A DNA stretch of 64,000 nucleotides from Artocarpus heterophyllus. Its lineage: Eukaryota > Streptophyta > Magnoliopsida > Rosales > Moraceae. Shown piece after piece: positions 15,104 through 54,500 of the stretch; the stretch's first letter is position 1, and each line of letters opens with the position of its first letter. The DNA lies in the NCBI GenBank assembly GCA_025403435.1, contig CM046345.1, positions 17,030,160 to 17,094,159 on the forward strand, in the 5' to 3' direction. The notes under the pieces are model-generated. The model made no database searches. It was not told where the DNA came from and saw nothing but the letters and a program-made list of their open reading frames with translations. The position numbers and the translations under genes were made by a program.

Positions 15104-16790
15104 ACTGGTATCAAAGCCAAGGTTTTTACATAAAATTACAAGTTTGTGACCATGCTATGTGAATAAATTATATGATCTTGATCTCTCCATGCTTGAATTT
15201 AATTTTTAGAGAGTTGGCACTCTAAGGTTTCTATATATTTATATACATTGTCATGAATTATATGGTGAATATTTATTAATTAATTATAGTTGATTAAATT
15301 ATTATTTAATTAATTGATGCTGGTTATGGTTCCTTATAGGTTTGAATGTGTATCTAAGTTTTTCATGTAATTAGATGGCGGTTTATCATTACTGTCTAGG
15401 AATTATTATTTAATTTTAAATTTATAAGAATTTTGTAATTAAATAATCATTTGGAAACAAGACAGATCTAGAAGATGGATAATAACTTTTCCAGGTATTT
15501 CTTGAGTTTTTAAATTTTTATGTTTTTGAATTGTTGAAAATAATATTGAAAAACTGTGTTAAAAACTATTTTCTAGAAAATTGTGATTTTTGCTTGGTTG
15601 TCTTAAACCCTCAAGTTTGGCAGGCCAATGGTCGCAGATCGACAGGCCATACCTAAGGCTCGGTAGGCCGTCTGCGGGACAAAAATCTGATAGCTCTAGT
15701 AGCAGGCCAAACTTTCTAGTTCAGTAGGCCGATCTGTAATGACTGGTAGGCCAATCTGAAAAGATCGGTAGGCTGATGGGTCATAACTAGTAGGCCGATC
15801 ACACAGATCGGTATGCCAGTAGAGAGCTATGAATTTTCAAAAAAGGTATGTTTTTCCATGCAGTTTTGATTTTATTTTTGGGACAATTCTGAGAAACATT
15901 AAATTTAGATATGGCCCAAAAGATGAATTATTTGATCTATATAGGATTGAAGGCTTGAAGATGTATGCCACATGAAGAAGCATACAACTTGAAGATTCAA
16001 GGATGACGAATCGATAAAATGTTTCGATTATTCTCTTGTAATCTTTGATTTCTTTTCTCTAAGATGGAACCCTAATATTACGATTATTTATAATTATTTT
16101 GCTTGTATCTTTGCATGATTGCTTTGCTTGTCTATATTATAATATGATTTGCCACGTATGTTGAAAACATGTCATATAGAATAGGGAGTGTCGCTCATTA
16201 AAAATTCTTCATGCATGTTTTTAAAATAAAACATTGATTTCAAAAGATTAAGTGGGAGAAATTTTTGAAGAGAGGACCTACAGCCTCCATCGTTGGTCCA
16301 TAGGTTGCACATGGTGGTTCGACCCCTAGGAAGGGACTTCATCATATACCAGGTTAGATCCCTGAGAGGATAAGGTATTTTAGCATGACTTATCATTGCA
16401 CGCCCCTAGGTGGTGATTATAAATCATGGATAGAATATTGAAATGATGGTTATACACTCATGTTGATTTTATTATTAACCTCCCCTAGAATTTCTATTAA
16501 TAAAATTAATGGCCAAAGAAACGATTATTAATATATGTTGGATCATACAGGTCCTACATGGCATATATTAATCAGGAGAGGATCCGTATCATTCCTAATT
16601 GAATTTAGCAAGTCTCGCCAAGGCGGCTCGTTGAATTCTGAGTTAGGAATTACTATTGTAAAGTTGTGAATTTTTCAAGATTTTGACATATAAACACATT
16701 GTATGTTTTATACATGATTGTGTTATCTTACTAAACTGTTATAGTATGTTTACTTATGTTTGGCATATGATTCTTTATTGTAGATTAAAA
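15104..16790 (+). other. Copia untranslated leader with palindromic repeat cluster
   Basis: A long non-coding stretch between primer site and gag. At 15618-15815 it holds roughly nine imperfect copies of a motif near TCGGTAGGCCGATC, spaced about 20-25 bases. The remainder is AT-rich with no ORF I would call. Confidence 0.6.
15106..15119 (+). other. Primer-binding site, copia element
   Basis: tggtatcaaagcc follows the LTR after two bases. It matches the initiator methionine tRNA 3' end (TGGTATCAGAGC) with one change, as is usual for plant copia elements. Confidence 0.85.
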
Positions 16791-19700
16791 ATGTCTAAAA
16801 ACGCTTTATCTTTGATACACGATAAAAACCAATTAATTGGTGAGAATTTTAATGATTGGAAACAGAACCTAAATATCGTCCTATCCTTTGAGAAGCTAAA
16901 AATTGTGCTAACCATATCGTGTCCTCCCAAACCTACTAGGGAATCCACTTATAAGGAAATCTAAGCATATGATCACTAGAAAGTTGCTAATGATCAGGCC
17001 TGTTGTTATGTTATGGCCAATATGAATAACATACTAAAAGCTGAACATGAAGATCATAAGACTGCGAAGCAGATCTTGGATAATCTTGAAGACATATTTG
17101 GAGGCCAAGCCCTGATAAAATGGCAAGGGGCACTTTGGAAACTCTTAAACTGCAAACAAAGACTAGCGATGTCTGTGAAGGAGCATATGATGTTGGTCAT
17201 AGGTTACCTCGCGGAGGCTCAAACCCATGGAGCTAACATAGATGCTAAAACATGGATGACTATGGTTTTTGAGACTTTATTTAAGGAGTTTATCCCATTT
17301 AGAGCTTTATTTAATTTGAGCAATAGACGAGATATGACCTTGATTGAGCTGATGAAGCAGTTATAAGAGTTTGAAAAACTGACCAGGGAAACTCCTGCTA
17401 GTGGAGAGGTTAACTTGGCTACTGCATCTAGTTCCAATCCTAATCTAAGGAATGGAAGGAAGCAAATGGCTGAGGATGAAAAGGTTGGGCACATAAAGAA
17501 GAATTGCAAGGACTTCCTTACTTGATGAGGTAGGTGTGATCTTCTAGTTATAGAAACTTGTTTAGTTGAAGAATTAAGTGACACATGGGTCATAGATTAT
17601 GGTGTAACTAATCATGTTTGTGTTTCTCTAGAGAGATTCTGGGAAAGGAGAAGTCTACTTCGCGAAGACTTCACGTTTCAAATGGGCAATGGGTCCTTGG
17701 TGTTGGCTGAAGCAATAGGAGATGTCCATCTTTATTTTGATAATTATATGAGTTTAGTTTTATGAGATTATTTTTATTTTCCTAAACTTAAAAGGAAATT
17801 GATATCTATAGCTTATTTATTTAAAGATTCTTACTCAGTTTCTTTTAATAATAGAGTAGTGATTCGTAAAAGCAAATCTTTTATCAGTGATGGATGATGC
17901 AAAACAATCTATATTTTATCAAACCTAAGATGAACTCACTGCTAAACATTGAGGTTAATGATAATAACTCTAAAAGACTTAAGACTTCTCAGTTTAATGA
18001 GATTTATCTTTGGCATTTGTGATTAGGTCATATTAGCCTAAATAGGATTCAAAGGTTGGTAAAGGATGGACCTTCAAGTCACTTAAAGGTGGAATCTATA
18101 CCACAATATGAATCTTGTTTGAAGGGCATAATGACCTAAAGATCATTCGGGCCTAAGGACAATAGGGCCGAAGGGGTTTTAGAACTTGTACATAGTGATG
18201 TTTACAGTCCTATGAACATCCGGGCACGAGAAGGGTATGAGTATTTCGTCACTTTTATTGATGATTACTCAAGGTATGGGTATGTGTACCTAATGTACCA
18301 TAAAAGCGAAACTTATGACAAGTTCATGGAGTTTCAGGCTGAAGTGGAAAACCAATTCGGTAAACCCATAAAGGCACTTCTATCCGATCGAGGTGGTGAA
18401 TAGCTTTCTGATGAGTTCTTGGAACACTTGTCAGAGAATGAGATTTTATCCTATTTGACTGCGCCAAGCACTCCGTAGTAGAATGGCGTGGCTGAGAGAA
18501 GGAATAGGACTTTGTTGGACATGGTTAGGTCCATGATGAGTAATTCATCATTGTCTTTATCTTTTTGGGGATATGTACTACTAATCGCATATTATCTTTT
18601 GAACAATGTACCTTCAAAAACAGTTCCTAAAACTCCTCACGAGTTGTGGACGGGCAGGAAGACATCCTTAAACTATATTCGCAAATGGGGATATCTAGCT
18701 CATGTCTTGTTTAGGGATACGAATAAGTTGGAAGCACATTTGAAAGTTTGTATGTTTATAGGGTATCCAAAAGGGATAGAGGGGGTTATTTCGATAACCC
18801 AAAGGAAAATAACATCGTGGTTTCAACAAATGCAACCTTTCGTGAGGAAAGTTACATGGATGACTTTAAGCCTTGAAGCAAAGTGGTGCTTAACGAGTTG
18901 GCGAGTGATTCGATCCCTCCCAAGGTTCTAAATGAAACCGTTCCCATCAGTATAGAAAAACCAATAGAACCTAAACAAGAACCTAAGGGGCTTTGGCCTA
19001 GTGGGAGGATCGGGCATTAACCCGAGAGGTATATGTTCAATAGCAAGGCCTTTTTGGCTGAACCGATTGAACATGACAGGGATCCTTACACTTACAAAAA
19101 GGCTATAGAGGATGTTGATTCAAAACTCTAGACAGAGGCCATGGACACTAAGATAAAGTCTATAGAGACTAATCGGGTCTAGGAACTTGCAGATCTTCCC
19201 GAAAGGGTAAAACCCATGGGGTGTAAGTGGATCTATAAGAGAAAGAGAGGAGTGAATGGAAAAGTCAAAACCTATAAAGCTAGACTTGTACATAAGGGAT
19301 ACACACCAAAGGAAGGAATCGATTACGAGGAAACCTTTTCTTAAGTCTATCTGCATTCTCTTGTCCATGGCTGCTGCTCTTGACTACGAGATTTGACAGA
19401 TGGATGTCAAGACGACCTTTTTAAACGATTATCTTGATGAGTCCATATATATAGAACAGCCAGACGGGTTCAAGGCTAAGGGTCAGGAGGGTAAGGTTTG
19501 TAAGCTGCTAAAGTCAATTTATAGACCTAAGCAGGCTTCCCATTCCTGGAATATAAGATTTGATCAGGTGATCAAGATTCATAGGTTCGAACAAAATGTT
19601 GACGAATCATTTGTTTATCAGCACATTAAGGATGCGAAGGTTTTTTTTTTTGCTGTTCTATGTAGATGACATATAACTTATTGGCAACGACGTTGGGGCG

Positions 19701-23555: not shown

Positions 23556-23560
23556 GACTT
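23556..23560. repeat. Target site duplication GACTT, left
   Basis: GACTT precedes the LTR start tgtaacgcccc; the second copy is at 32510-32514. Confidence 0.92.
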
Positions 23561-25914
23561 TGTAACGCCCCTATATGGGGGTTAACAGTTTTTAATGAGA
23601 TAAAATAAAAATAAATAATAAAAGTAAAACCTTAAAAATAAAATTTGCCCGGGACTTAAATGAAAACTCTCAACTCAAAAATAAAAATATAAACGACAAA
23701 TAAACCACAGTTTTAATGTAGCACCTTAAATTTAATAATATAAACTGTTGTCATCATCATTTTAACCCTCAACACATTGTAATACAGTCACAGAAAGTAA
23801 CAATTGATGCTTACATTATCATGAAGAACATTCTCAACAATTGAAGCAGTCCTAATGTAATATAGCTACATCACTTCCTCAACTATATTTCTCGTAGCCA
23901 CCTCACACTTAGTGAGTCCTGAAAAGATATAAACATAAGGGAATGAGCGACACTATGCTCAGTAGAGAAAGCCATTACTCACCTCTATCATTACCACATT
24001 AAAATCTGCATGGTTAGTAAGTCACATCATATTTCAGATTATGAGGTTTATTATGATCACATCTTATGGATACCGTAGTTAATCATTACCAAGTGTCATA
24101 ATTACACATTTATACAAATATTACCAATCATCATTGTTCCTAGGTATCCATGTTAAATTGAGTATCACTCAACTCATCGAAACCCAAATGGGCGCACTTG
24201 ATCACCCTATAAACATTCCAAGGGTGTTCCGGTGAGGGGACATCAAGCCCCGAGTCCTCACCAAATCGATTCCTGTACAGTGTGTTCTGGGACTTTCAAC
24301 CCAAGGAAGCGTCATCGCCTTCCCCCTACTTTACCTTTTAGGGTATTCATGCCCAAGGACGTAACCGTCGCCCTTTTCATGTCTCACAATTTCTCTATAT
24401 TAAATCATTATTAATAGAGTTAATTTTCCTAACCATGCTTCTCAATTTATAACATGTGTCAATTCATTATGTTCCTCGCCGTACAATACAAGACGAGTCC
24501 ATGTCATAGTTTCATATGTGATACACATATAATATCAGTTCAACATAGATATATATATATATTGCGGCAAAACAATCAATTTTAATTCTATAAAAACCTC
24601 ACAAAAGATGAGTAATAGAATCCCTACCTTTCAAGCTTATCAACAATCTTTTAATCCTGGAATCAGTTAACGTTAGCTCCATACTCCCTTGATCCTAAGG
24701 CGTGCATAAGGACAATTAAAACTAAAGCACAACATACAACTACATTCATAAATAAATCATGTGTAAACCTATCTTACTAGTATGCCATTAAAGCTTTTAT
24801 ATAAATCTCTTTTGAATACCACAGTAAACAATTTTTGTCTTAACACAATATAAAATGTGAACAAGTAATCTATATGTTTTAGTCCCTAATAAGATTCATC
24901 AATCACTTAGGATAATATTGGAAAGGTTGCAAGCATTAAAGAATTAGGTGGTGAGCAAAGATGGGTTCTTGGTTCAGGTTAGCAGCTGGTATACCATAAC
25001 AAATTGGCAGATTTACTAGTTTCCAATACAAAAATTGAATAATTCTTAGAAAATAAAATACAACTCCGATTTAGGTTTATGATAGCTCGTTAGAAAGCCT
25101 AGGATGCTACTTTTCAAATATGCAAACCAATTCATAAAATTCATTTTAATTTAATCTTAGAATTTCAAGAAATAACCACTGCCCATAGAGGTATTACAAA
25201 GTTTAACAATATAAATTTTCTGTCTAGGGCATATACACTTAGACTTCATACATATTCTCCAAAATAGCAACAAACATATACTTAGGTTTAAGAACGCAAA
25301 TTTGAATAATCCTTTAGTATAAAAGAAAATTTATAAATGAAAGACTAAATTTGTTCATAAGATTCTAACCTCGGATTATGGTTAGTTGGAAGCTTGAAAT
25401 GGCTTCAAAACAGGTTCCTTTAGTTCGGTATGACTGAAATTCTTGCTCAAATGGAGGTGATCGTGGCTGATTTTTATGGCTGCCTTGAAGAAGTTCTCTA
25501 AGTATTTTGCTTCAGCAAAGAAATAAGAAGAAGAGTGTGGGAACCGTGGAAGAGAAAGGAAGAAAAGATGAAGTCTTTGAAGAGAAGTGATAGAAACAAT
25601 TATAGAGGAGACATGTTGAAGCATGTCACGGAGGAAATAAAGAAAATGAGGGTCAAGAGTAGTTGGAAAATATATCCTTATGTCTCATCTAAAGACTTTA
25701 ACACACATAATGCCAATATGACATTTTTGAGATTTATTAGAAGTTCTAAGGCTTTTTAGTAATCATACTAAATAAATATAGGAGAATTTTAGAAAACTTA
25801 AAAATAGATAAAAATAAATATTATAAAATAAATTTAAATGAAGCAATTTTTTTTTATACATTAAAAATTAATTTAATTACCTCAATACCCGTTAGGAGAA
25901 TAACGGGTGTCACA
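23561..25914 (-). repeat. 3' LTR of the LOG-carrying element (element strand minus)
   Basis: On the plus strand it runs from tgtaacgcccctatat to gggtgtcaca. It is nearly identical to 30155-32509: differences seen are t/c near 23857, c/a near 25062 and a missing base near 24928. The small ORFs here (24232-24414, 25382-25624, 25535-25759) recur identically in the other LTR and show no family match. I treat them as LTR sequence, not genes. Confidence 0.92.
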
Positions 25915-25952
25915 GCTCTACCCCCCTTAAAGAAATTTCGTCCTCGAAATTT
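25915..25952 (-). other. Polypurine tract and Tekay-type 3' signature
   Basis: On the minus strand the sequence reads AAATTTCGAGGACGAAATTT, then CTTTAAGGGGGGTAGAG, then the LTR. The purine run primes plus-strand DNA synthesis. The palindromic AAATTTCGAGGACGAAATTT block followed by AAGGGGGG is a known hallmark of the 3' end of Tekay/Del chromoviruses, which ties this element to that lineage. Confidence 0.85.
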
Positions 25953-26868
25953 CAATTCTAGCAATACTAGTAAAAATTATGATTCCACTATGATTCCAAT
26001 TCTGAGTCTAAACCGTTAATGTTGTTTGTCCTCCAAATTTAAGTTATCGTATCTCCACTCATTTACTTGCATAATAAATCTTACTCCTAAATCCCTCAAT
26101 GAGAGTATTTCTGACAAGTTTCAACTTATAACACCGTATAATAGTCTAAGAATCTGATCAGGCATACATATTGACCATATCATGATTCCAGTCCTTCATT
26201 GTCCATGGACTGTGATTTACAATCACATTTAAGGAGATTGCCAGAGAAATTTTATATACTTCATCTTTAGGTTCCTTTTCCTTTTTGAGTAAAGAAAAGT
26301 CAAATATATTTGATTTCATACCTCAACTAATAAACTAGAACATAATCATAAAACATATATCACAAACACTTTTATTCAAAACTATACATTAAACTTACTC
26401 ATAGAGATATTAAACGGAATCTCTGGTTGCAAACATACCCGACATATTTTTCATTAAACAGCTATCCTCATGACACAAACATTCAATCCAAATAATATAC
26501 TCATATTTCATATGGAATATCCCCATAACTGACTCTGGTACTTCCACATAATATTAACAGAATATTACACATTACAAACATAATACGGATACGTTTCGAG
26601 AGTACAAGGCACTCCGTATACCAGCTATCCATATCATGCATGCTTAGAGGATACAAAAACATCGATAAACAAAAGATCGGACCTTAAGAAGGATGCGTTT
26701 CGAGAGCATCAAGTACTCCGTATCCAGCCATCCCGGCATTAGGCTCAATGAATCTAAAAGATTGAACAACGACGTACCACAAGAAACACAGAATACAAGG
26801 CAAACGGTTATTCGTAACACACGAAATACGGACACACATGCCTACATGCCAAAGATAAAACAAAAAGA
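25953..26868 (-). other. Non-coding 3' part of the LOG-carrying element
   Basis: Lies between the LOG stop codon and the Tekay-type 3' signature. It holds a short direct repeat near 26598 and 26695 (gtttcgagag, cactccgtat / tactccgtat). No family-supported ORF. Confidence 0.5.
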
Positions 26869-27558
26869 TTACAGATGGAGATTCAAATCAATTGGCCGCT
26901 CCCGGCTTTCCCTTTCCCATTCAAGCTTGGATGTTGCAGTGTCGGATTCTGGATGTATGATTTGCATTTTATCTATCAATTCCTCAGCTGTTGAAGCAGT
27001 AACAAAGATTTGTCTCTCCGATTCTGTAGTGATGTTTTCTTCCACAGCGTAATCTAGAAATTTCAAAAGACCGTCATAAAAACCCTTTACGTTCAACAGT
27101 CCCAAAGGTTTGGAATAAAAGCCCAACAATTGCCCACAAGCAACTATAAATATTTCCTCAAGAGTACCTAGACCACCAGGTAATGCTATAAAAGCATCAG
27201 AATTATAGATTATGTCTTTAAAATTTTTAGGGATACTCCTGACTCCTTCTCCCTTACCTATGGCTTCCTTACAAAGGTTTCCTTCAACTGGAATATGAGG
27301 CCAAATTCTTACATCAGTAGCGTCGCTAGACCTAGCTGCTAGTGTCATATTTACCATCATTTTTATACTACCACCCCCATAGATTATGTTAATCTTCTTG
27401 CGTGCTAGGACTTGCCCTAAGTGATTTGCAGCTTCTAAATAAGCTTTATCTTTTCCAAGGCTGGAACCACAAAAGACACAGACATTCTTTATTTTCTTCG
27501 TGGACTGGGAGGTAGACATATTTGGTTTATAGAAGTGGTTGCTTAATGTCTGCTCCAC
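26869..27558 (-). CDS. LOG family cytokinin riboside 5'-monophosphate phosphoribohydrolase, retroelement-captured
   Basis: 229 residues, uninterrupted, close to the usual plant LOG length. LOG enzymes release the active cytokinin base from its riboside monophosphate. Visible family features: VCVFCGSSLGKD at the N-terminus (about residues 27-38), IIYGGGS (about 58-64), the PGGLGTLEE motif (about 129-137; family pattern PGGxGTxxE with the catalytic Glu), KPLGLLNVKGFYDGLL, and a C-terminal TSKLEWE. Two usual motifs are changed. GGGSVGLMG has become GGGSIKMMV, and the MHxRKAEM stretch with its conserved Arg has become IPKNFKDI, so catalysis is doubtful. A second possible start lies 13 codons in (MSTSQSTKK). 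Plant LOG genes normally have several introns; this copy has none and lies on the coding strand of the retroelement, which suggests capture of a spliced transcript. Confidence 0.85.
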   Translation of the reverse strand: MEQTLSNHFYKPNMSTSQSTKKIKNVCVFCGSSLGKDKAYLEAANHLGQVLARKKINIIYGGGSIKMMVNMTLAARSSDATDVRIWPHIPVEGNLCKEAIGKGEGVRSIPKNFKDIIYNSDAFIALPGGLGTLEEIFIVACGQLLGFYSKPLGLLNVKGFYDGLLKFLDYAVEENITTESERQIFVTASTAEELIDKMQIIHPESDTATSKLEWERESRERPIDLNLHL

Positions 27559-28174
27559 TTAGACTTCGGGTTCTACATAAGTTTTTAAAGATGAGAAATA
27601 TACAAAAAGGGCTAAAGAGATAGACGAGTAGGTAATGAAAAGGTAATCCAAAGATTTAAACAAAATCTTGTGCGGATAAGAAAGTAAGATAAGGTGATTA
27701 ATAGTTTACAGAAAATCTGATTCACTTTTTGAAAAAGATTAGACTCTAATTGTATAACTTTTGACAATTGAGAACAATTCGACAGAAGACCCTCATGACA
27801 CAACTGTAGACTTTTTGACAAATATACACCAAGTCTAGAAATTTAATATAAACGACAAATACTGTAGAACTTTTGAAATTTGAGACACAAATCTTGAAAT
27901 ATCTGGATAAGCTTTTCAAAATTCAAACATATTACTGTACCGTATGTGACGTGTCTGATAAGATAATATATTTTATTATATATATATATATATATATATT
28001 TAAGAAAATCATAAATTAAATAAGATATTAACACTTACTATATCAATCTAATAATCACAATTATTTCAAACACAAAAGTAAATATTCTGAGTAAAAGAAA
28101 AACACAAACTGTTGAACATCAGCTAAAACTGCTTCAAATAAGTAAAGACTAAATAACCTTTATAGAGCGAAGAC
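27559..28174 (-). other. Spacer between the two ORFs of the LOG-carrying element
   Basis: AT-rich, with a TA microsatellite at 27976-27999. No coding signal. Confidence 0.6.
27976..27999. repeat. (TA)n microsatellite
   Basis: Uninterrupted TA run inside the LOG-carrying element. Confidence 0.9.
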
Positions 28175-28696
28175 TTATTCCCCATCCAGTTTTCTTATGG
28201 CTTGACAAACAGGATCTAGAAATACCATATTCCTGAGGCGTTGTCTTTCTGTATAAAATTTAGGCCAGAGTTTAAAAATAGCTCCTTGAACATATCCACT
28301 AGGGTGACCGTGGAGAGGAGGATGGATGCTATCCAAGTTCTCCTTTGAAAGTCCATTCCTACAAAACCTTATTTTATCCTCTCTATTCGTAGACATATAA
28401 CCAGGTGAAGTACATTTACCGTTACAATTTTGTCTTCCACATTTGTTACAAGTGATCACGATGGCACGAGCTCTTCTTTTCATTGCACTACGACTGGTAC
28501 CTGTTCCTGGTAAACCGACATCTTGACTAAAGTCACTCGGACGGATTTTCCCCTCTATCAACATTCTCACATCACAAGGGATGCCAAAATGCATAAGAAT
28601 CCACAACCGAGTAATTCTAGCCTTGTATTTCTTTCTGAGAATCTTTTGGGAGAGTGATGGGAAATACTTTCTCAGATGTTGGTACTTTGGGTCCAT
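28175..28696 (-). CDS. Unrecognised 173-residue ORF with zinc-knuckle-like Cys cluster
   Basis: First ORF of the LOG-carrying element, between primer site and LOG, on the same strand. I do not recognise the family. The N-terminal third is basic (MDPKYQHLRKYFPSLSQKIL and on). A Lys/Arg-rich KRRARA stretch precedes a cluster CNKCGRQNCNGKC (about residues 84-96). That is C-x2-C-x4-C-x3-C, reminiscent of but not the same as the gag zinc knuckle C-x2-C-x4-H-x4-C. The C-terminal part is hydrophilic and ends RKLDGE. There is no signal peptide or membrane segment. An unbroken frame of this length in AT-rich plant DNA, in a very young element, suggests it is real. It could be a diverged gag-like nucleic-acid binder or a second captured host fragment. 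Confidence 0.55.
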   Translation of the reverse strand: MDPKYQHLRKYFPSLSQKILRKKYKARITRLWILMHFGIPCDVRMLIEGKIRPSDFSQDVGLPGTGTSRSAMKRRARAIVITCNKCGRQNCNGKCTSPGYMSTNREDKIRFCRNGLSKENLDSIHPPLHGHPSGYVQGAIFKLWPKFYTERQRLRNMVFLDPVCQAIRKLDGE

Positions 28697-30130
28697 GATG
28701 AGATGAAAGAAGAGTAAATAGAAAGGAAAAATTAAGATAGTAAATTGCAGAATCCTAGAATTCCTTCTTCTTTTAGAGAAAAAGAAGAATTTTTAATGAA
28801 AAAGAAGAGGATTTGCGATTTAAAGAGAAAATAACAAATTAAGAGAGAAAAAGTGAACTCGGAGAAATAAGCTCCTATGCACAGTAAACATATATGTAAA
28901 CAATGATTAAACCACTGTATAAGACACGTATAGAAACCACGTGGGAGAGATAGTGTGAATCAAACTGATTTAAGATTTGAACTAAGCCCAAATGTTCTAA
29001 GTTGAAAATGGTCAGGTTGTTTCGGGCCTTAACACATTTAGAACGAGTTAAATAACAAACATAAAATTGAAAACCAATTCGTATGAATCTTAAACCCAAT
29101 TCAAAGCCCACTATAGATAAAGTTAACTATAAACAACAAATCTAATTTAACGACAACAAGGATCTTCTTGAATGATCCAGCAACTCAAATAATTTTGTTT
29201 TAATCAAAACCTTATTGAACAATACATACACCCATATGTTATTCCTAATACTCAACATCTATCAATGGATTCATCATCATTACTACCAAGGGTTTAGAAT
29301 GTGACTAACCTTGAAATCAATACGATTTACGTCTTTCAACGTAGACCATATCAATGAACAAAGACACTAGATGTTACTACTTAGGAACATCTACAATCTC
29401 CACAATTCTACTTATACAATATCGAATTTCCTCATATAACAAAATCTTGGGTAACCAAAAGATTCACTGATACACTTAAATACAATGTACGTAATGAAAT
29501 ATTCCAATTTTGAGATTCATGCATTCTAGACTTTACACAGTCTCAACAGACCAAAAGTCTAACATTTATCTCTCTCAAGATTCAATACCATGATTCCCAA
29601 CTTATATCATATTCCTCAAATAAATAGAACTTTTAAGAAAAGATATTGACACTTATGTGTTCCATCGAATCCACACATAATCATTACTTAGGTTTGAATC
29701 AATTACGAAAAATTTGGCATATCTATGTCAAACTTTAAAATCAATAAATCAAGCCTTATATTTCTCATTGTTTTTCACGAGACAAAAGGCTCTTAAATCC
29801 TCGTATCTACACGAATTTCTCATCGTTTATACGAATTAAATATGCTTATAGATCCTAATATTATACGAATCTCTCATAAGCATTCTACTTATAAACTCAT
29901 TTCATATAATTATCATTCCCTCATAACTATTAATACTTTCCTTCTATATAATTATTGTACTCATATAACCATTAGTATTTTCATTCTATGGCCTTTCCAT
30001 GTTACATCCTTCTAAACTGTATAAATCAATGTGAAGGTTCATTTTGATGATGACAATGAAAATTCAGCTTCAAAACCATCTCAAAAATATATTTTTTTAA
30101 AGTGGTGCTACACTCCCTAGGTTAACCGAA
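28697..30130 (-). other. Leader region of the LOG-carrying element, no recognised gene
   Basis: About 1.4 kb between primer site and the first ORF. AT-rich. The only ORF over 60 codons (28875-29111, minus) has no family features. No gag or protease remnant was found, so the coding part was replaced rather than decayed in place. Confidence 0.6.
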
Positions 30131-30147
30131 CCTAGGCTCTGATACCA
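30131..30147 (-). other. Primer-binding site, tRNA-iMet, of the LOG-carrying element
   Basis: The plus strand reads ggctctgatacca, i.e. TGGTATCAGAGCC on the minus strand, complementary to the initiator methionine tRNA 3' end. It lies seven bases inside the right LTR and fixes the element orientation as minus. Confidence 0.9.
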
Positions 30148-30154
30148 AAAATTC

Positions 30155-32509
30155 TGTAACGCCCCTATATGGGGGTTAACAGTTTTTAATGAGATAAAAT
30201 AAAAATAAATAATAAAAGTAAAACCTTAAAAATAAAATTTGCCCGGGACTTAAATGAAAACTCTCAACTCAAAAATAAAAATATAAACGACAAATAAACC
30301 ACAGTTTTAATGTAGCACCTTAAATTTAATAATATAAACTGTTGTCATCATCATTTTAACCCTCAACACATTGTAATACAGTCACAGAAAGTAACAATTG
30401 ATGCTTACATTATCATGAAGAACATTCTCAACAATTGAAGCAGTCCCAATGTAATATAGCTACATCACTTCCTCAACTATATTTCTCGTAGCCACCTCAC
30501 ACTTAGTGAGTCCTGAAAAGATATAAACATAAGGGAATGAGCGACACTATGCTCAGTAGAGAAAGCCATTACTCACCTCTATCATTACCACATTAAAATC
30601 TGCATGGTTAGTAAGTCACATCATATTTCAGATTATGAGGTTTATTATGATCACATCTTATGGATACCGTAGTTAATCATTACCAAGTGTCATAATTACA
30701 CATTTATACAAATATTACCAATCATCATTGTTCCTAGGTATCCATGTTAAATTGAGTATCACTCAACTCATCGAAACCCAAATGGGCGCACTTGATCACC
30801 CTATAAACATTCCAAGGGTGTTCCGGTGAGGGGACATCAAGCCCCGAGTCCTCACCAAATCGATTCCTGTACAGTGTGTTCTGGGACTTTCAACCCAAGG
30901 AAGCGTCATCGCCTTCCCCCTACTTTACCTTTTAGGGTATTCATGCCCAAGGACGTAACCGTCGCCCTTTTCATGTCTCACAATTTCTCTATATTAAATC
31001 ATTATTAATAGAGTTAATTTTCCTAACCATGCTTCTCAATTTATAACATGTGTCAATTCATTATGTTCCTCGCCGTACAATACAAGACGAGTCCATGTCA
31101 TAGTTTCATATGTGATACACATATAATATCAGTTCAACATAGATATATATATATATTGCGGCAAAACAATCAATTTTAATTCTATAAAAACCTCACAAAA
31201 GATGAGTAATAGAATCCCTACCTTTCAAGCTTATCAACAATCTTTTAATCCTGGAATCAGTTAACGTTAGCTCCATACTCCCTTGATCCTAAGGCGTGCA
31301 TAAGGACAATTAAAACTAAAGCACAACATACAACTACATTCATAAATAAATCATGTGTAAACCTATCTTACTAGTATGCCATTAAAGCTTTTATATAAAT
31401 CTCTTTTGAATACCACAGTAAACAATTTTTGTCTTAACACAATATAAAATGTGAACAAGTAATCTATATGTTTTAGTCCCTAATAAGATTCATCAATCAC
31501 TTAGGATAATATTGGAAAGGTTGCAAGACATTAAAGAATTAGGTGGTGAGCAAAGATGGGTTCTTGGTTCAGGTTAGCAGCTGGTATACCATAACAAATT
31601 GGCAGATTTACTAGTTTCCAATACAAAAATTGAATAATTCTTAGAAAATAAAATACAACTCAGATTTAGGTTTATGATAGCTCGTTAGAAAGCCTAGGAT
31701 GCTACTTTTCAAATATGCAAACCAATTCATAAAATTCATTTTAATTTAATCTTAGAATTTCAAGAAATAACCACTGCCCATAGAGGTATTACAAAGTTTA
31801 ACAATATAAATTTTCTGTCTAGGGCATATACACTTAGACTTCATACATATTCTCCAAAATAGCAACAAACATATACTTAGGTTTAAGAACGCAAATTTGA
31901 ATAATCCTTTAGTATAAAAGAAAATTTATAAATGAAAGACTAAATTTGTTCATAAGATTCTAACCTCGGATTATGGTTAGTTGGAAGCTTGAAATGGCTT
32001 CAAAACAGGTTCCTTTAGTTCGGTATGACTGAAATTCTTGCTCAAATGGAGGTGATCGTGGCTGATTTTTATGGCTGCCTTGAAGAAGTTCTCTAAGTAT
32101 TTTGCTTCAGCAAAGAAATAAGAAGAAGAGTGTGGGAACCGTGGAAGAGAAAGGAAGAAAAGATGAAGTCTTTGAAGAGAAGTGATAGAAACAATTATAG
32201 AGGAGACATGTTGAAGCATGTCACGGAGGAAATAAAGAAAATGAGGGTCAAGAGTAGTTGGAAAATATATCCTTATGTCTCATCTAAAGACTTTAACACA
32301 CATAATGCCAATATGACATTTTTGAGATTTATTAGAAGTTCTAAGGCTTTTTAGTAATCATACTAAATAAATATAGGAGAATTTTAGAAAACTTAAAAAT
32401 AGATAAAAATAAATATTATAAAATAAATTTAAATGAAGCAATTTTTTTTTATACATTAAAAATTAATTTAATTACCTCAATACCCGTTAGGAGAATAACG
32501 GGTGTCACA
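30155..32509 (-). repeat. 5' LTR of the LOG-carrying element (element strand minus)
   Basis: 2355 bases, same sequence as 23561-25914 apart from two substitutions and one indel. Reading the minus strand it starts tgtgacacccgttatt and ends ggggcgttaca, so it should hold the element promoter. I did not identify the TATA box with confidence. Confidence 0.92.
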
Positions 32510-32514
32510 GACTT
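32510..32514. repeat. Target site duplication GACTT, right
   Basis: GACTT follows the LTR end gggtgtcaca and pairs with 23556-23560. Confidence 0.92.
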
Positions 32515-38204: not shown

Positions 38205-38261
38205 CATGGTTACACCGTCTGAAGAATGAAGATAAATAGGGAGAAAAATATATTTAGGATT

Positions 38262-39482
38262 ATGGCATCTGAAGTAGAGCGTAAGATTCCTGTCATAAAG
38301 TTAAGTGAGGTGAAGGACTTGAATCCCGGATCAGATTCATGGGTCTTGACCTGCCAAAATGTCCGATACGCCATGGAAGAGTATGGCTGTCTCGAAATTG
38401 TTTGCGATGAATTTCCACTGGAACTTCACAACTCGATATTTTGTGCAGCTAAAGACTTGTTCAATCTTCCCAAAGAAACTAAAATGCAGAAAACCATTGA
38501 CAGGCCTGTCACAATAGGCTATGTGGCTGAACATCCCACAAATCCTCGCTATGAAAGTCTTGGAATTGATTTTCCAAACACTCTACAAGGAGCTGAACAT
38601 TTCACCAAAATTATGTGGCCTGCAGGAAATGATACTTTCCGGTATATGTGTACATCCTGTATATATTGGTGTATATATACATAAAGATATACGTAAATCT
38701 GAAAATGAGTTTTCTCTAACTTTCTCTGAATATGATTATGTTTATATATGTATTATTAGTGAAACTGTGCATTCTTTCTCAAAGCGCCTAGTGGAATTGT
38801 ATGAAATGGTAACAAGAATGGTGATTGAGAGTTATGGTGTGGAGATCAAGCAGTTTGACTTCATCAGGGAATCTAGCTTTCACGTTCTCCGATTCACCAA
38901 GTACAGAACTCCGCGGTCCAACGAGAATGACTTAGCATTGGGAGCTCACAAAGACCCTGGCTTCACAACCATACTTCATCAGCATCAAATTGAAGGTCTG
39001 CAGATCAAAACAAAGGACGGGCAGTGGATCGATGTGAAACCCTCGGCTTCTTCTTTCCTAGTCCTTGCAGGCTACGTGCTTATGGTATGTGTCCTATTGA
39101 GTGTTTTTGTGTGCGTGTCATCTGATTAATTTGTGGTTTTTTCAGCTTGAAGAAGGAAAATCAAAGAGATAGACATATTAATTACATGATCTGGTTATCT
39201 TTTTTCTTTTTTTTTTTTTTTTTTTTGGTTTCGAAGGCATGGAGCAACGACAATATACACCCTTGTGAGCATCGAGTGATGACAAAAGATCAGGACGAAG
39301 TCAGATATTCCCTTGGATTATTCACATTTACCAAGGGGGTGATACATGTTCCTGAAGAACTAGTCGATGACAAACATCCGTTACTATATAAACCAATCGA
39401 TGCTTTAGATTTCTACGCCTTCCATCTTTCAGACGTAGGACGGAAAAGCGCATGTTCTATCAAAGATTATTGTGGTCTTTGA
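38262..39482 (+). CDS. AOP-like 2-oxoglutarate-dependent dioxygenase, three exons
   Basis: Fe(II)/2-oxoglutarate-dependent oxygenase, closest by pattern to plant AOP-type enzymes; the substrate cannot be read from sequence. Exons 38262-38641, 38760-39084 and 39237-39482 are separated by GT-AG introns. The exon 1/2 junction rebuilds an Arg codon, and exon 2/3 joins in phase as LM|AWSND. The product is 316 residues, normal for the family. Exon 1 holds the N-terminal DIOX_N region (IPVIKLSEVKDL onward). The jelly-roll part has the iron ligands HKD (in GAHKDPGFTTILH) and the His of CEHRV, and the 2-oxoglutarate-binding RYSLG (R-x-S). It ends IKDYCGL, as AOP proteins do. One oddity: the usual GD before the last ligand block is GY here (LAGYVLMAW). 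An alternative ATG at 38226 would add 12 residues but lies too near the TATA box. Confidence 0.9.
38642..38759 (+). other. Intron 1 of the dioxygenase gene
   Basis: 118 bases, GTATAT to TTAG. Removing it restores NDTFRETVHSF, the expected continuation in AOP-like enzymes. Confidence 0.85.
39085..39236 (+). other. Intron 2 of the dioxygenase gene
   Basis: 152 bases, GTATGT to AAG, with a long T tract (39199-39227) before the acceptor. Confidence 0.85.
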
Positions 39483-41730: not shown

Positions 41731-44700
41731 ATTAAATTTCAGCTTGGAGCCCATTGCTCCTTGTATGCTCTTCCAAAATCTTGAGGTGAATCGACTATCT
41801 CTATTAGAGATGATAGATTTTGGAACTCCATGCAACATCACTAGCTTTGATACGTATAATTCTACTAATCCCTCTACAAAAAAGCTAAGTTTGATGGGTA
41901 AAAAGTGTGCAGACTTGGTTAGTTGATCGACAATTACCAAATTGCATTGTTGCCATTAGAGGTTCTTGGCAATTCAATTGCAAAATCCATCGTTATTTAA
42001 TCCCATTTCCATTCTGGTGTGTCAATTTTTTGCAACTCCCCTACTGAACGCTAATATTCTTCCTTGACTTTCTGACATGTAAGGCATTTTGATACAAATT
42101 TAGCAATATCTTTCTTCATTTCGTTCCACCAGAAGCTCTCTTTTAGATCTGTGTACATCTTTGTCACTCCTAGATGTACAGAACAAGGGTTTTTGTGTGC
42201 TTCCGAAAGGATCTTTTTCTTCATTTCTACATTGTTAGGTCTACATATCCTACCCTTGAGGTGCAGTATGCTGTCTTCAGAAAGCCTAAACTCTGTTTTC
42301 TTTCTTTCTTTATAGAACCTCCCCGTGTATTTTAACCAAAGCAGGGTCAAGTTCTTTATTGCCTTTCATGTAATCGATGGTAGTAGGTTGGAGTGTTAAT
42401 GTTGATAATTTTCCTGAAATCAACTCAACTCCAACGTTGTTGATATCTTTTTATAGAATCTAGGGTAGAAATGAGTGTTGCTGTAAACTTTCGACTCAAT
42501 GCATCGGTTACTTTGTTTACTTTGTCGGGGTGATAAAGGATATCATAGTTGTAATCCTTCACTAGTTCTAGCCACTTTTGTTGCCTCGTGTTTAACTTCT
42601 TCTACAAAAAGATGTACTTGATTCTTTGATGATTAGTGTAAATTTCACATCTTTCTCCACATAGGTAGTGCCACCATATTTTTAGCATAAAAGCCACCCC
42701 TGCAAGTTTTAAATCATGCATCGACTAGTTCTTCTTATGGTCCTTAAGATATCATGAGGCGTAGGTAACTATTTTAACTTGCATAAGGACAGCTCCTAAA
42801 CCCAATTTAGAAGCGTCATTGTAAATCATGAAATTTCCTTCTTTTGCATCTAGAATTGTTAGCACTAGAGCATTATTGAGCCTTTTTTTAGCTCCTTGAA
42901 GTTTTCTCTAAACTTATCAGTCCATTCATATCATTTTCCTTTCTGTGGGAAAGCTGTAAGAGGTGCTGCTATCTTCAAAAATACTTCTACAAACCATCGA
43001 TAATACCTTACCAATCCAAGGAAGCTATGTTTTTTTGTCACACTTTTTGAGGTTGGCCATTGAGTCAATGCTTCAATCTTCGCAGGGTCCACAACAACTC
43101 CTTCTTTAGATACCACATGTCCCAAAAAATTGTACCTTTTCTAGCCAAAATTCACACTTTGAGAATTTGCAAACAGCTAATTTTCCTTCAATATCTATAA
43201 GGCTATCCTTAAGTGTTCCATGTGCTCTTCTTTGGTCTTTGAGTAAATCAAAATATCATCTATGAAAACGATGATGAACTTGTCTAGATAGTCCTTGAAT
43301 ACTCTATTCATCAGCTTTATAAATACTACTAGAGCATCAGTCAAACCAAAAGGCATCATAAGAAATTCATAGTGTCCATAACGTGTCCTAAAAGTTGTCT
43401 TTGGCACATCTCCTTCCTTAATTCAAAGCTGGTGATATACATAACGCAGATCAATCTTTAAGAAGTAGGCAGCTCCCTTCAACTGATCAAATAAATTGTC
43501 GATTTGTGATAGTTGATACTTGTTCTTAATTGTGATCTTGTTTAGCTGCCGATAACCGATGCACATTCTTAGTGTACCATCTTTCTTCATTACAAACAGA
43601 ACCGGTGCTTTCCTTGGTGAGTAACTTAGACGAATAAAAACCTTGTCTAGTAGTTATTGTGACTACTCTTGAAGCTCTTGACGTTCTACTTGGGCCATAG
43701 AAACTAGTGCTGATTCGGGCATTAATTCTATCTTGAATGAAATCTCCCGTTCTAGCAGCAGTCTTAGCAACTCTTCTAGAAAAAATTCAACAAAGTTTTT
43801 GACCACTGGGACGTCTTGTGGTTCTATCTTACTCTCCTTGGTCTTGTCCACTAAGTTGGCTAAGTATCCTTTGCAGTCACTAGCTAATAGTTTGCTTGCT
43901 TTTACAGCCGATGTCATTGATACTGACTACTTCTACGATGTTCCCATGCAAGTAAATTCTTCTTCCTCTACAGGTTTGAATGTGAGCTTACGATGTCGAT
44001 AGTTGATAATTGCATTGTACTTTCCCAAGAAATCCATTCTCAAGATGACATCATAATCATTCATATCAATTATTATCAAGTTCACGTATAGCTCTCTACC
44101 ACATATAATTATTGGTATATTTCATAGCCAGTAATTTGACACTAGCATTTCCCAGAGGGCAAAGCAATCCTAACTGATTAGTTTATTTTATCATTGTCCC
44201 TATCTAGATGCTTGACAAACTTAGTTGATATAAATAAATGTATTGCTCTTGAATCAAATAAAGCATAAGCATTACGGTTGGCTATAGGAAGCTGACCTAT
44301 TACCATTGTAGAGGTCCTAGTTTTCACATCATTCCTGGTATACACATCGATGCAGGCCTGTGGCTTTGGAGCTTCCAACCTTCCTTGTAAAATCAGTAGT
44401 CCTGTGATCTTGGCTTGGACTACATGTAGCTAATTTGTTGGTGCTCTTTACTGGTTCTACCTCGACTGATTCTTAGGGTTTGAGTAACACTGCTTAGCAT
44501 AATGGCCTTTTTAGCCACAAATATAACAACAGTTTGACTCAGCTCTACATTCTCCCAGATGTTTCTTTCTACATTTAGAACAAGTAGGGTAGTTGTTGTT
44601 ATTATTCCCATTGTGGTTTTTTCTCTAAGGCTAGTCTGTCTAGTTGCCTTGATTGGGATTTCCCTTTCTCTTATTGTTATTATACTAGCCTTGTTGTTTG

Positions 44701-45683
44701 TTACCCTTGCTGGAGTTATTGCCTTGATTCTTTTGCTAAGACTCAAGGTTTTGTTTTGCTTTGGCCTTTCTTCTTTTCTGGCCCTTGAAAACTTGGCTCT
44801 CACTTCTTCGTTATGGGTTACCTAATAATCAATGCAGACTGCTCAACGGATGAAATTCTCTATGGAGTTTGCTCCCACAACTGACTACGACAGCAATGTC
44901 AGACCTAAACATCTTCATCATCTTCCTTATTTCATCCTTCTTATTGCTCACCATATGAGGGCAAAGTCAAGGTAGTTGCTTGAACTTTTGTACAATGTCT
45001 TTTACTGACATATTACCCTAAAGAAAGTTATTGAACTCATCCTCCTGAGCTGCCATGGTGTCCATATTGAAATACATCTCATGGAACTCATCAACAAAAT
45101 CTTGCCAAGTCATCTCATTAACATCTCTCCTTAGCTCTACACCTTGCCACCAATGACGGGCTTCCTTCTTCAATACATAAGAGGCACACAGGACCTTCTC
45201 TTGATCATTCAATCTCATAAAGTTCAGTACCACTTGAACATCATTCAGCCAATTGTCTATTTCTATAGGATTGGTGGAACCATCAAACTTTGGTGGCTTC
45301 AAACATCAAAACTTTTCTAGCACCATGTCCCATCGCACATTCGCCATTAGCTGATCTCCTCATCCTCCCACTAATTAAAGTTCTAATGGGTCATGTGGCA
45401 TTTCTGGATTATCTTGTCCTCCATCTGCTAAAAGATCTTCTGGTATAGAAGTATCCTCTTTCTTGTTATGTCCCCTTGCTTCTAGAAGGTCTTGTGATGT
45501 AGGTAGGTTCTCTTGATTCTAAATCCCTCCAGTTAGAGGTGCTAGATTTTGTCGTGCTAACTGCTCACGTAGTTCATTCTTCTCTCGTTGTTGGGCTAGT
45601 AGTTGCTATCTCATCTCAGCAATTTGTGCCAGCATAAAAATTTCATGCAGCTGTCGGGCCGCTTGAGCTCATGGTCTAACCAT
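41731..45683 (-). pseudogene. Ty3/gypsy gag-pol, degenerate, integrase truncated
   Basis: Order on the minus strand: gag from about 45683 (coiled-coil-like N-terminus, then MKPPKFDGSTNPIEIDNWL and RHWWQG); two Cys knuckles near 44480-44600 (CSKCRKKH and CYICG-GHYAKQC, the second with a stop); protease near 44280 (LFDSRAIHLFIS, a decayed DSGATHSFIS); reverse transcriptase near 43700-43195 with MPFGLTDA and intact FIDDILIY; RNase H to about 42400; integrase zinc finger near 42060-42150 (CLTCQKVK) and core to 41731 (IVDQLTKSAHF, NRDSRFTSRFW). Many stops and frameshifts occur. It ends mid-integrase at the junction with copia RNase H. Confidence 0.9.
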
Positions 45684-51105: not shown

Positions 51106-51117
51106 TGGTATCAGAGT
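51106..51117 (+). other. Primer-binding site, plus-strand gypsy element
   Basis: tggtatcagagt, five bases after the LTR, complementary to tRNA-iMet. Confidence 0.88.
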
Positions 51118-51317: not shown

Positions 51318-54300
51318 ATGGACGGTCACAGAAGAATGCAAACCCGCACCTAGACCAACGAAAGGTTGATGACGATGATTGCTGAGATGTAGAGGCAACT
51401 AGAGGATCAAAGAAGAGAGATTGCAGAATTAAGGGCCAACGGCCAGAACGATGAATGACAAGGCAATGACGTGCCTCCTCCTCTTCCTCCTCCGCAGCCA
51501 CAAGTCAATGAAGTACCGACTCTTGTTGTTGAACTAAGAGCGGCCTATCAGGAACCGTTCTTAGTTAGATGAAAGATGGTTAAGCCAGCAGATTTTGAGG
51601 GTTCTAAGGATCCACTAGTCGCACAAGGATGGCTAAAGACAATTGAGGCCACTCTGAGACTCATGGACTTCACAGATAACAAGAAGGGTCTCTGTGCTTT
51701 ATACTGTCTTACCATGGAGGCTAGGATTTGGTGGGACAAAATCGAACAGAGCAGGAATGTTGATGAAATGATATGGGTTGACTTCGTTCATGAGTTCAAC
51801 ATGAAGTTCTTCCACATGATCATTAGAAGAAAGCATTATGATGAGTTCGAAAACCTACGCCAAGGAGATATGTCAATAACAGATATGGTGACAAAGTTTG
51901 ATCAGCTAGCTCGCCTTTGTCCAGGGATGGTTAATGATGAGAGTGAAAGGGTTAGAAGATTGATCAGAGTCCTCAGGCCAGAAATTACTGTGATTGTTGA
52001 TGGGGCGAGTCCACCCGGAAGCCAGGAGTAGGTTGTTATGAGGGCCCAACATGCTGAGTTCCACCTGTCAAAGCTAAGAAGAAATCAGCCTCAGTCTGGT
52101 CAGTCAGCCAGTAATACAAACAAACAGAACCACCCTCCACATCGGAACAACAACAACAGCAGCAACAACAACAACAACCAGAACTAGAGGAATAATAAGA
52201 GGAAGGCCAATTCTCAGAACCAACAGGGCCAAGGTAACAAGAGGCATAATGGTAGCCAGCCCAACAACAACAATAGGCAGTATCAGTCGTGCACTAAATG
52301 TAGAAGGAAACATCCTGGAGAATGTCACATGGGGACAAATCAGTGTTTTATCTGTGGGCGGGAAGATCATTTTGCTAAGAACTGCCCCAACTAGACAAAT
52401 GCTCAAGCCCAGCAAAGAGCTTCACAAGCCTAACTCCATCAGATGCAAGCTTCCTTAGAAGGGCCACTGATTAGTCAAGGAAGACTTGAAGCCCCACCTA
52501 TGAATGCCCGCATCTATGCCATGATAAAAGAACAGGTGGCTGTTGAAGCCTCAAATGTGGTCACAGGTCAGATAACAAGTCTTTCTATTAATGCATATGT
52601 CCTCTTTGATTCAGGTGCCACACATTCTTTTATATCGTCATCCTTTGCTAAGAAGTTAGGGGTTCATTTAAAACCAATGAGATAGGCATTCACTATGACA
52701 CTACCCTCTAGGGAAGTGATGATATCTACGCACTGTTTGCGTACAGTACCTCTATGGATTTTTGATAGGGAACTCTTTGTCAACCTTATCGTGATCGACA
52801 TGTATGATTATGACATGATTCTTGGGATGGATTTTCTGAGCAAGTACAATGCTTCCATTGAATGCCAAAAATGAAAGGTGATCTTCCATCAAGAAGGTGA
52901 TCAAAAGTTCGTGTATGTTGGCGAGTCCAGGAAGAAACCCAGCATGTTTTTATTCACCATGAAAGCAAGGAAGTTGTTAGCTAGTGGCTGCATGGGCTAT
53001 CTGGCCAACATTATAGATAAAAGCTAAGAAGAAAAGACAAAGATTGAAGATGTGGCAGTGGTATGTGAATTTTCAAAGGTGTTTCTAGATGATCTGTCAA
53101 ACCTACCTCCTGATAGAGAAGTCGAATTCAAGATCGAGCTCGCTCCTAGCACCGACCTAATTTCGAAGGCTCCATGCAGAATGGCCTCAACAGAGTTAAA
53201 GGAGCTTCACAAGCAATTAAAAGAATTACTCGACAAAGGCTTCATCAGGCCTAGTCACTCACCATGGGGAGCTCCAATTTTATTTGTCAAGAAGAAGGAT
53301 GGATCTATGTGACTCTGCATCGACTATAGAGAGCTAAACAAGGCAATGATCAAGAACTAGTACCCATTGCCTCGAATCGATGACTTGTTTGATCAGTTTA
53401 AGGGTGCATCTATGTTCTCAAAGATTGATCTGCGGTCAAGATATCACCAGCTGAAGATTAAAGAAGGAGACATTCCTAAGACAGCCTTTAGATCGAGGTA
53501 TAGTCACTATAAATTTGTGGTTATGCCCTTTGGTCTAACGAATGCACTTGCAGCCTTCATGGACCTGATGAATCGGGTATTCAAGGATTTCCTTGATAAA
53601 TTTGTCATTGTGTTTATCGACAATATTCTTGTTTATTTGATGAGCCAAGAAGAACATGTGGAGCATCTAAGGATTGTGTTGGAGAAATTAAGAAGACACC
53701 AGCTATATGCAAAATTCTCCACGTGTGAGTTCTGGCTCGATAGAGTGTCTTTCTTGGGGCATGTAATATCAAAGGAAGGAATCATGGTAGACCCTGCTAA
53801 GGTAGGGGCTATTCTCAACTAGAAACAACCAACAAATGCAAGTGAAATAAGGAGCTGTTTGGGACTAGCGGGTTGTTATCGGAGATTCGTAGAAGACTTT
53901 TTCAAGATAGCAGCACCCCTCACGAATCTAACTCGCAAGGGAAAGAAGTATGAATGGACTAAAGCATGCGAGAAGAGTTTCCAAGAACTAAAGAAGAGGT
54001 TAATGACAGCTCTAGTATTGGCTATTCCAGAAAGAAGTGACAGATTTATAATTTACAGTGACGCTTCTAAGATGGGTCTTGGTGTAGTCCTAATGCAGAA
54101 TGACAGAATAATTGCTTACACATCAAGACAACTGAAGGATTATGAAAATAACTATCTTACTCATGACCTTGAGTTAGCAGCAATCATTTTTGCATTGAAA
54201 AAAAGGAGGCATTATTTATATGGGGTCCAATGCAAGATCTTCACTGATCATCAAAGTCTAAAGTACTTCTTCACTCAGAAGGACCTAAACATGAGAAAAG

Positions 54301-54500
54301 GAAGATGGCTAAAGCTGGTGAAGGTTTACAATTGTGAAATCCTATATCACCCTAGAAAGGCCAGCCGAGTGGTTGATGCTTTGAGTAGGAAGATAACGGC
54401 TACACTAATGTCATTACAAGCAATGTCTCCATCTTTGAGAAAGGAAATTCAAGACTTCAGTTTGGAACTTATCACAAGCTAGCTGTCAGCACTCACTCTT
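51318..54500 (+). pseudogene. Ty3/gypsy gag-PR-RT-RH polyprotein, degenerate
   Basis: Gag opens at ATG 51318. Its core is at 51576-52031 (VKPADFEGSKDP, RIWWDKIEQ), with Cys knuckles at about 52290-52390 (CTKCRRKHPGECH and CFICGREDHFAKNC). Protease carries LFDSGATHSFISSSF near 52600. Reverse transcriptase runs from about 53050 to 53820 ([32 protein letters not shown]); its active-site box reads FIDNILVY, with Asn in place of the second catalytic Asp. RNase H at 53860-54480 has [11 protein letters not shown] and [11 protein letters not shown]. Stops include TAG codons where Gln or Trp is expected (for example near 53360 and 53821). Not functional. Confidence 0.92.

What the first reader, a model, noticed from the sequence alone, without database searches (positions are those of the whole stretch)
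23561..32509. Recently moved retroelement that carries a cytokinin-activation (LOG) gene
Two almost identical 2.35 kb LTRs, perfect GACTT target copies, an iMet primer site and a Tekay-type polypurine end define a complete element. Inside there is no gag-pol but an intronless, full-length LOG ORF plus a second ORF, both on the element's coding strand. LOG genes in plants normally contain introns, so capture of a spliced transcript by template switching is the simplest reading. With only two substitutions seen between LTRs the insertion is young, so this could be an active family spreading a hormone gene. I know of no described LOG-carrying LTR element.
Basis: partly seen in the sequence, partly recalled or inferred. 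Interest (0 to 1): 0.92.

Follow-up and report, generated by a model that had tools for sequence, protein, structure and literature searches.

The report
Gag-pol-less retroelement with two accessory genes
A recently inserted plant retrotransposon without recognisable replication genes carries instead two intact genes, one related to a zinc-finger protein family of plant RNA viruses that includes silencing suppressors, the other a relative of a hormone-activating enzyme (LOG) that has lost a key active-site residue, which hints that such elements collect genes that act on their host.

Summary
The element is real: 2354/2355-bp LTRs (two substitutions, one 1-bp indel), GACTT target copies, primer site and polypurine end, and no gag-pol found. 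The interpretation changes in three ways. (1) LOG-carrying LTR elements are already in print: PMC9289625 reports the YgdH/LOG domain in Citrus and Populus LTR-retrotransposon consensuses, 'in line with' a 2011 report. (2) This LOG is not a fresh host copy. It lies outside the five sampled canonical LOGs (100/100), on a long branch, and has Asn where 108 of 115 relatives have the catalytic Arg; cytokinin activation by this copy is unlikely. In a second plant-like contig (L001) it lies directly behind a gypsy-type integrase on the same strand. Best reading: a non-autonomous, Tekay-like element carrying an old retroelement accessory cassette. Copy number in the host genome is untested, because the genome search did not complete.

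The parts
23556..23560 (.). target-site copy GACTT (left)
23561..25914 (-). 3' LTR of the element (2354 bp)
25915..25952 (-). polypurine end AAGGGGGGTAGAGC next to the 3' LTR, with AAATTTCGAGGACGAAATTT just inside; Tekay-like by recall only
26869..27519 (-). LOG-family ORF, 216 aa, intronless, with Asn in place of the catalytic Arg and a C-terminal LxLxL tail
28175..28696 (-). second ORF, 173 aa: basic run plus CxxCxRxxC finger, member of a plant family matching flexivirus cysteine-rich protein models
30136..30147 (-). primer binding site TGGTATCAGAGC (initiator-tRNA-Met type by recall)
30155..32509 (-). 5' LTR of the element (2355 bp)
32510..32514 (.). target-site copy GACTT (right)

Best explanation
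A non-autonomous LTR retrotransposon (a large retrotransposon derivative with Tekay-like ends) that is moved by gag-pol proteins of a related element and carries, where gag-pol should be, an old retroelement accessory cassette: a flexivirus-type cysteine-rich zinc-finger protein (CRP) followed by a LOG-derived protein. Shown: anatomy, recent insertion, two intact ORFs, the wide plant distribution of the CRP family and its place behind a gypsy-type integrase in another contig, and the loss of the catalytic Arg in this LOG. Inferred: mobilisation in trans; that the CRP acts like viral CRPs, weakening RNA silencing of the element or acting in the nucleus; that the LOG-like protein is a pseudo-enzyme kept for its fold or tail, or is beginning to decay; and that the cassette reached this shell by template switching or recombination from another gypsy lineage.
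For: LTRs, TSD, PBS, PPT; no gag-pol found. CRP: 854 profile hits at E 0.01 or better, 120 listed, including chromosomal proteins of Populus, Xanthoceras, Acer, Hibiscus, Rhamnella and Orobanche; of 16 aligned members 15 match Carla_C4 and 13 Viral_NABP at E up to 0.1; L001 CRP passes the Viral_NABP cut-off (34.1 against 23 bits) and lies directly downstream of an integrase ORF on the same strand; codon positions differ 75/53/96 over 172 codons and 15 of 26 fourfold sites differ between window and L001 CRPs, the pattern of a conserved protein. LOG: PGGLGTLEE kept, 37 of 45 conserved positions kept in residues 106-190 but only 4 of 15 in 51-105. LOG domains in LTR elements elsewhere (PMC9289625). 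LOG relative P0050 and CRP relative P0149 are both listed with a longest contig of 8723 nt, 0.02 coincidences expected in the 5-10 kb bin.
Against: The window CRP alone is below both Pfam cut-offs (16 and 13.3 bits against 23 and 20.9) and has an NCBIfam match to an unrelated enzyme at E 7.8e-4, far below that model's cut-off. The CRP model is poor (pTM 0.34) and no viral structure match is significant (best E 0.036). L001 has a CRP but no LOG. CRP and LOG on one piece of DNA are seen directly only in the window. 103 of 125 collected CRP members, not all, show the basic run plus finger. Copy number, transcription and protein activity are untested.
Confidence: 0.58

Rival explanations
1. Passenger or relic: both ORFs were picked up by a gag-pol-less derivative and do nothing for it; they are intact only because the insertion and its source copies are young.
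For: The LOG has lost the catalytic Arg and most conserved positions of residues 51-105 on a branch of 1.37 changes per column; no expression data; LTRs nearly identical.
Against: After that much change a drifting ORF of 216 codons would be expected to hold stops, yet it is open, its fold core is kept and the near-copy P0001 differs at one residue. The CRP family shows codon-position constraint against L001.
Confidence: 0.27
2. One reading: recent template-switch capture of a spliced host LOG mRNA, so that the element spreads an active cytokinin-activating enzyme.
For: Intronless full-length LOG-family ORF inside a young LTR element; host LOG genes have introns (recalled).
Against: 37-47% identity to relatives; outside the five sampled canonical LOGs at 100/100; catalytic Arg and Trp129 lost; LOG domains already known in LTR elements.
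Confidence: 0.07
3. The CRP is a recent fragment of an infecting flexivirus integrated into the retroelement.
For: Pfam models of flexivirus CRPs match the family; the five best viral structure matches are flexivirus CRPs, though not significant.
Against: It belongs to a large, diverse family present in plant chromosomes and behind a gypsy-type integrase in L001; members share about 180-aa architecture with conserved N- and C-terminal blocks; no other viral domain in the 10 of 26 internal frames scanned.
Confidence: 0.04

Closest known systems
LOG/YgdH-carrying LTR retrotransposons of Citrus and Populus (PMC9289625; Steinbauerova 2011, Athila-like elements with LOGL4 similarity, recalled)
   Same: LTR elements with a LOG-family accessory ORF
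   Different: Those were found by their reverse transcriptase and reported as LOG domains only; here there is no gag-pol, the ends look Tekay-like, a CRP ORF precedes the LOG, and the LOG has lost its catalytic Arg. Whether the Citrus and Populus elements also hold a CRP was not tested.
Cysteine-rich proteins (CRP/NABP) of carlaviruses, allexiviruses and mandariviruses (PMC12172455 passages)
   Same: Basic run (NLS-like) followed by a Cys finger; Pfam Carla_C4/Viral_NABP similarity of the family
   Different: Carried by retroelements and plant chromosomes; about 180 aa with further conserved blocks; no activity shown
Additional/extra ORFs of plant gypsy elements (PMC7264820, PMC6317226, PMC11728184)
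   Same: Non-gag-pol genes, often in sense between pol and 3' LTR, as in L001
   Different: The PMC6317226 survey took only extra ORFs of at least 250 codons, so ORFs of 173-182 and 216 codons would have been missed there
AlkB-carrying gypsy elements of Phalaenopsis orchids (PMC9289625)
   Same: Plant gypsy elements that gained an accessory gene of a type also found in flexiviruses (the viral part recalled)
   Different: Another gene; giant 25-kb elements; enzyme activity shown in vitro

Membership tests
LTR retrotransposon insertion | near-identical TG...CA direct LTRs flanked by a 5-bp target copy | tested here: met
LTR retrotransposon insertion | PBS after the 5' LTR and PPT before the 3' LTR on the coding strand | tested here: met
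   tRNA identity recalled
autonomous Tekay chromovirus | gag, RT, RNase H, integrase and chromodomain | tested here: not met
   none found (10 of 26 frames scanned); hence 'non-autonomous, Tekay-like ends', not a Tekay member
Tekay lineage | LTR or polyprotein phylogeny within Tekay | not testable with these tools
   no polyprotein in the element and no reference LTR set on hand
LOG family (fold) | LOG/TIGR00730 sequence family and LOG fold | tested here: met
   TIGR00730 128.4 bits, cut-off 96.35; 2a33, E 1.8e-16
active LOG phosphoribohydrolase | catalytic Arg and the Glu of PGGxGTxxE | tested here: not met
   Glu motif present, Arg replaced by Asn99; activity itself not testable here
flexivirus-type CRP | basic NLS-like run followed by a Cys finger | tested here: met
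   window copy and 103 of 125 collected members
flexivirus-type CRP | Pfam PF05515/PF01623 above cut-off | tested here: inconclusive
   window copy below both; L001 member above PF05515 but just below PF01623 (20.4 against 20.9 bits)
flexivirus-type CRP | silencing suppression or nuclear activity | not testable with these tools
   needs an assay

The most novel reading that the evidence does not exclude
Plant gypsy retrotransposons across eudicots share with flexiviruses a CRP that counters silencing or reprograms host transcription, and some pair it with a LOG-derived protein (here a non-catalytic, LxLxL-tailed one) as a mobile host-manipulation cassette that hops between retroelement lineages, in this case into a gag-pol-less shell.
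Probability: 0.3. Interest if true: 0.82.

Novelty: new variant of a known kind. Interest (0 to 1): 0.58.

Why it matters
LOG domains in LTR elements are known but unexplained. Here a LOG-derived ORF sits with a CRP of the type that plant viruses use against silencing, both intact in a young element without recognisable replication genes. That makes the question of what accessory ORFs do for plant retroelements directly testable with two small proteins and simple assays. A CRP family shared by plant retrotransposons and RNA viruses would also be a case of gene traffic between them; no paper in the listings showed such a report.

Tried and rejected

Papers: PMC9289625 abstract, passages and section 12; PMC7264820 part 1 of 3 and passages; passages only of PMC6317226, PMC11728184, PMC11963269, PMC13317346, PMC6338049, PMC4979012 and PMC12172455. 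Steinbauerova 2011 is not held; its LOGL4/Athila content is recalled and is supported by the citation in PMC9289625. Recalled labels: Tekay end, iMet PBS, Athila-type pol of L001, large retrotransposon derivative, EAR-like LxLxL tail, introns in host LOG genes, substitution rates.
Full report
The element. Window 23561-32509 is a complete LTR retrotransposon insertion. The LTRs (23561-25914, 30155-32509) differ at three of 2355 alignment columns (two substitutions, one 1-bp indel), are flanked by GACTT on both sides, and have on the - strand a TGGTATCAGAGC primer site and an AAGGGGGGTAGAGC polypurine end. With the two substitutions and recalled rates of 7e-9 to 1.3e-8 per site and year the insertion is about 33-61 thousand years old. 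The internal 4240 bp hold no recognisable gag-pol: 10 of 26 other frames of 45 aa or more were scanned by Pfam without a retroelement domain, and gag, RT, RNase H and integrase queries gave nothing better than E 0.78 there, while finding gypsy copies elsewhere in the window.

The LOG ORF (27519-26869, - strand). It is a LOG-family protein, below the cut-off of the LOG equivalog model. Its model (mean pLDDT 75, block means 49-54 over residues 71-100) matches solved LOGs, best 2a33 at E 1.8e-16. The protein search gave 5278 hits, 120 listed. Apart from P0001 (8 member sequences, 12 contigs, one residue different) the relatives aligned with it are 37-47% identical. Of 115 relatives compared, 85 end in LxLxL, as the window copy does. 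In a 28-row tree the five canonical LOG rows form a clade at 100/100 that excludes the window copy, whose stem with P0001 is 1.37; its exact neighbour is unresolved. Of 79 positions conserved in at least 90% of the relatives it keeps 56: 15 of 19 in residues 1-50, 4 of 15 in 51-105, 37 of 45 in 106-190. It has Asn99 where 108 of 115 have Arg, Ile96 where 110 have Met, and Gly129 where 97% have Trp; PGGLGTLEE is kept (109 of 115 relatives have PGGxGTxxE). In CgLOG, Arg99 and Glu122 are the proposed catalytic residues and alanine substitutions of the AMP-site and catalytic residues, except one serine, nearly abolished activity (PMC4979012 passages). So this copy is probably not a working cytokinin-activating enzyme. 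The relatives themselves mostly lack the His97 and Lys100 of the prenyl site (28 and 13 of 115), so substrate use may differ in the whole group.

Prior report. PMC9289625 section 12 found the YgdH/LOG domain in LTR-retrotransposon consensuses of Citrus sinensis and C. clementina and, with a filter lifted, P. trichocarpa, 'in line with' Steinbauerova 2011. LOG-carrying LTR elements are therefore not new. The several Populus 'LOGL10' and unnamed Populus proteins among my hits fit that, but I did not see their surroundings.

The second ORF (28696-28175, - strand). A single-sequence search gave 15 proteins and a profile search 854, of which 120 are listed, among them chromosomal proteins of Populus, Xanthoceras, Acer, Hibiscus, Rhamnella and Orobanche. 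Of 16 aligned members 15 match Carla_C4 and 13 Viral_NABP at E up to 0.1; the window copy alone is below both cut-offs. A basic run followed by CxxCxRxxC is in the window copy and in 103 of 125 collected members. Viral CRPs have an NLS-plus-finger layout; several are silencing suppressors, and chrysanthemum virus B p12 also acts as a transcription factor that induces hyperplasia (PMC12172455 passages). The structure model is weak (pTM 0.34). Its five best viral matches, and 8 of all 20, are flexivirus proteins, but the best E is 0.036.

Where the CRP lies elsewhere. L001 (3330 bp) has an integrase ORF at 194-1594 (rve and H2C2 domains), then on the same strand a CRP ORF at 1787-2347, 49% identical to the window's, then a polypurine-like run with GGGGGG at 2603. 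This is the place where env-like and other 3' accessory ORFs sit in plant gypsy elements (PMC7264820). I recognise the pol as Athila-type from recall only. L001 lists no LOG ORF. Between window and L001 CRPs 172 codons differ at 75/53/96 first/second/third positions, and 15 of 26 fourfold sites differ, as expected of a conserved protein. That LOG relatives sit beside CRP genes elsewhere is only hinted at by P0050 and P0149, both listed with an 8723-nt longest contig, which I could not open.

Mechanism. Most likely the element is copied in trans by a related gypsy element and spreads with two host-directed proteins: a CRP that weakens silencing or acts in the nucleus, and a LOG-derived pseudo-enzyme. 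Mobilisation, CRP activity and any role of the LOG protein are inferred. The main rival is that both ORFs are relics. The LxLxL tail resembles an EAR repression motif (recalled); among the canonical rows of the tree it is absent from the four with a complete C-terminus (AtLOG3 was only the stretch printed), but six or more non-canonical rows also lack it.

Limits. The host species was not identified. The listings showed no paper on CRP genes in retroelements, but the library lacks most subscription journals, and the survey in PMC6317226 took only extra ORFs of at least 250 codons.

Noticed in passing
window 51576-54482 (+): Another Ty3/gypsy element with gag, RT and RNase H ORFs (Pfam Retrotrans_gag, RVT_1, RT_RNaseH) and a PBS-like 12-mer with one mismatch at 51106.
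   Followed up: partly
window 41961-45302 (-): A further degraded gypsy copy, found by tblastn with the gag, RT and RNase H of the 51-54 kb element (41-62% identity).
   Followed up: no
window 17013-18931 (+): Retroelement remnant: an ORF with a retroviral polymerase SH3-like domain, Ty1/copia-like by recall; a PBS-like 12-mer with one mismatch lies at 15106.
   Followed up: no
window 38226-39129 (+): Parts of a 2-oxoglutarate/Fe(II) dioxygenase gene (Pfam DIOX_N and 2OG-FeII_Oxy in overlapping ORFs), probably a host gene.
   Followed up: no
LOG relatives P0004-P0120: 85 of 115 listed LOG relatives end in an LxLxL tail resembling an EAR repression motif.
   Followed up: partly
L001 1-3330: A plant-type gypsy pol with a CRP gene sits in a public contig titled as a Candidatus Nomurabacteria MAG, most likely contamination.
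   Followed up: yes
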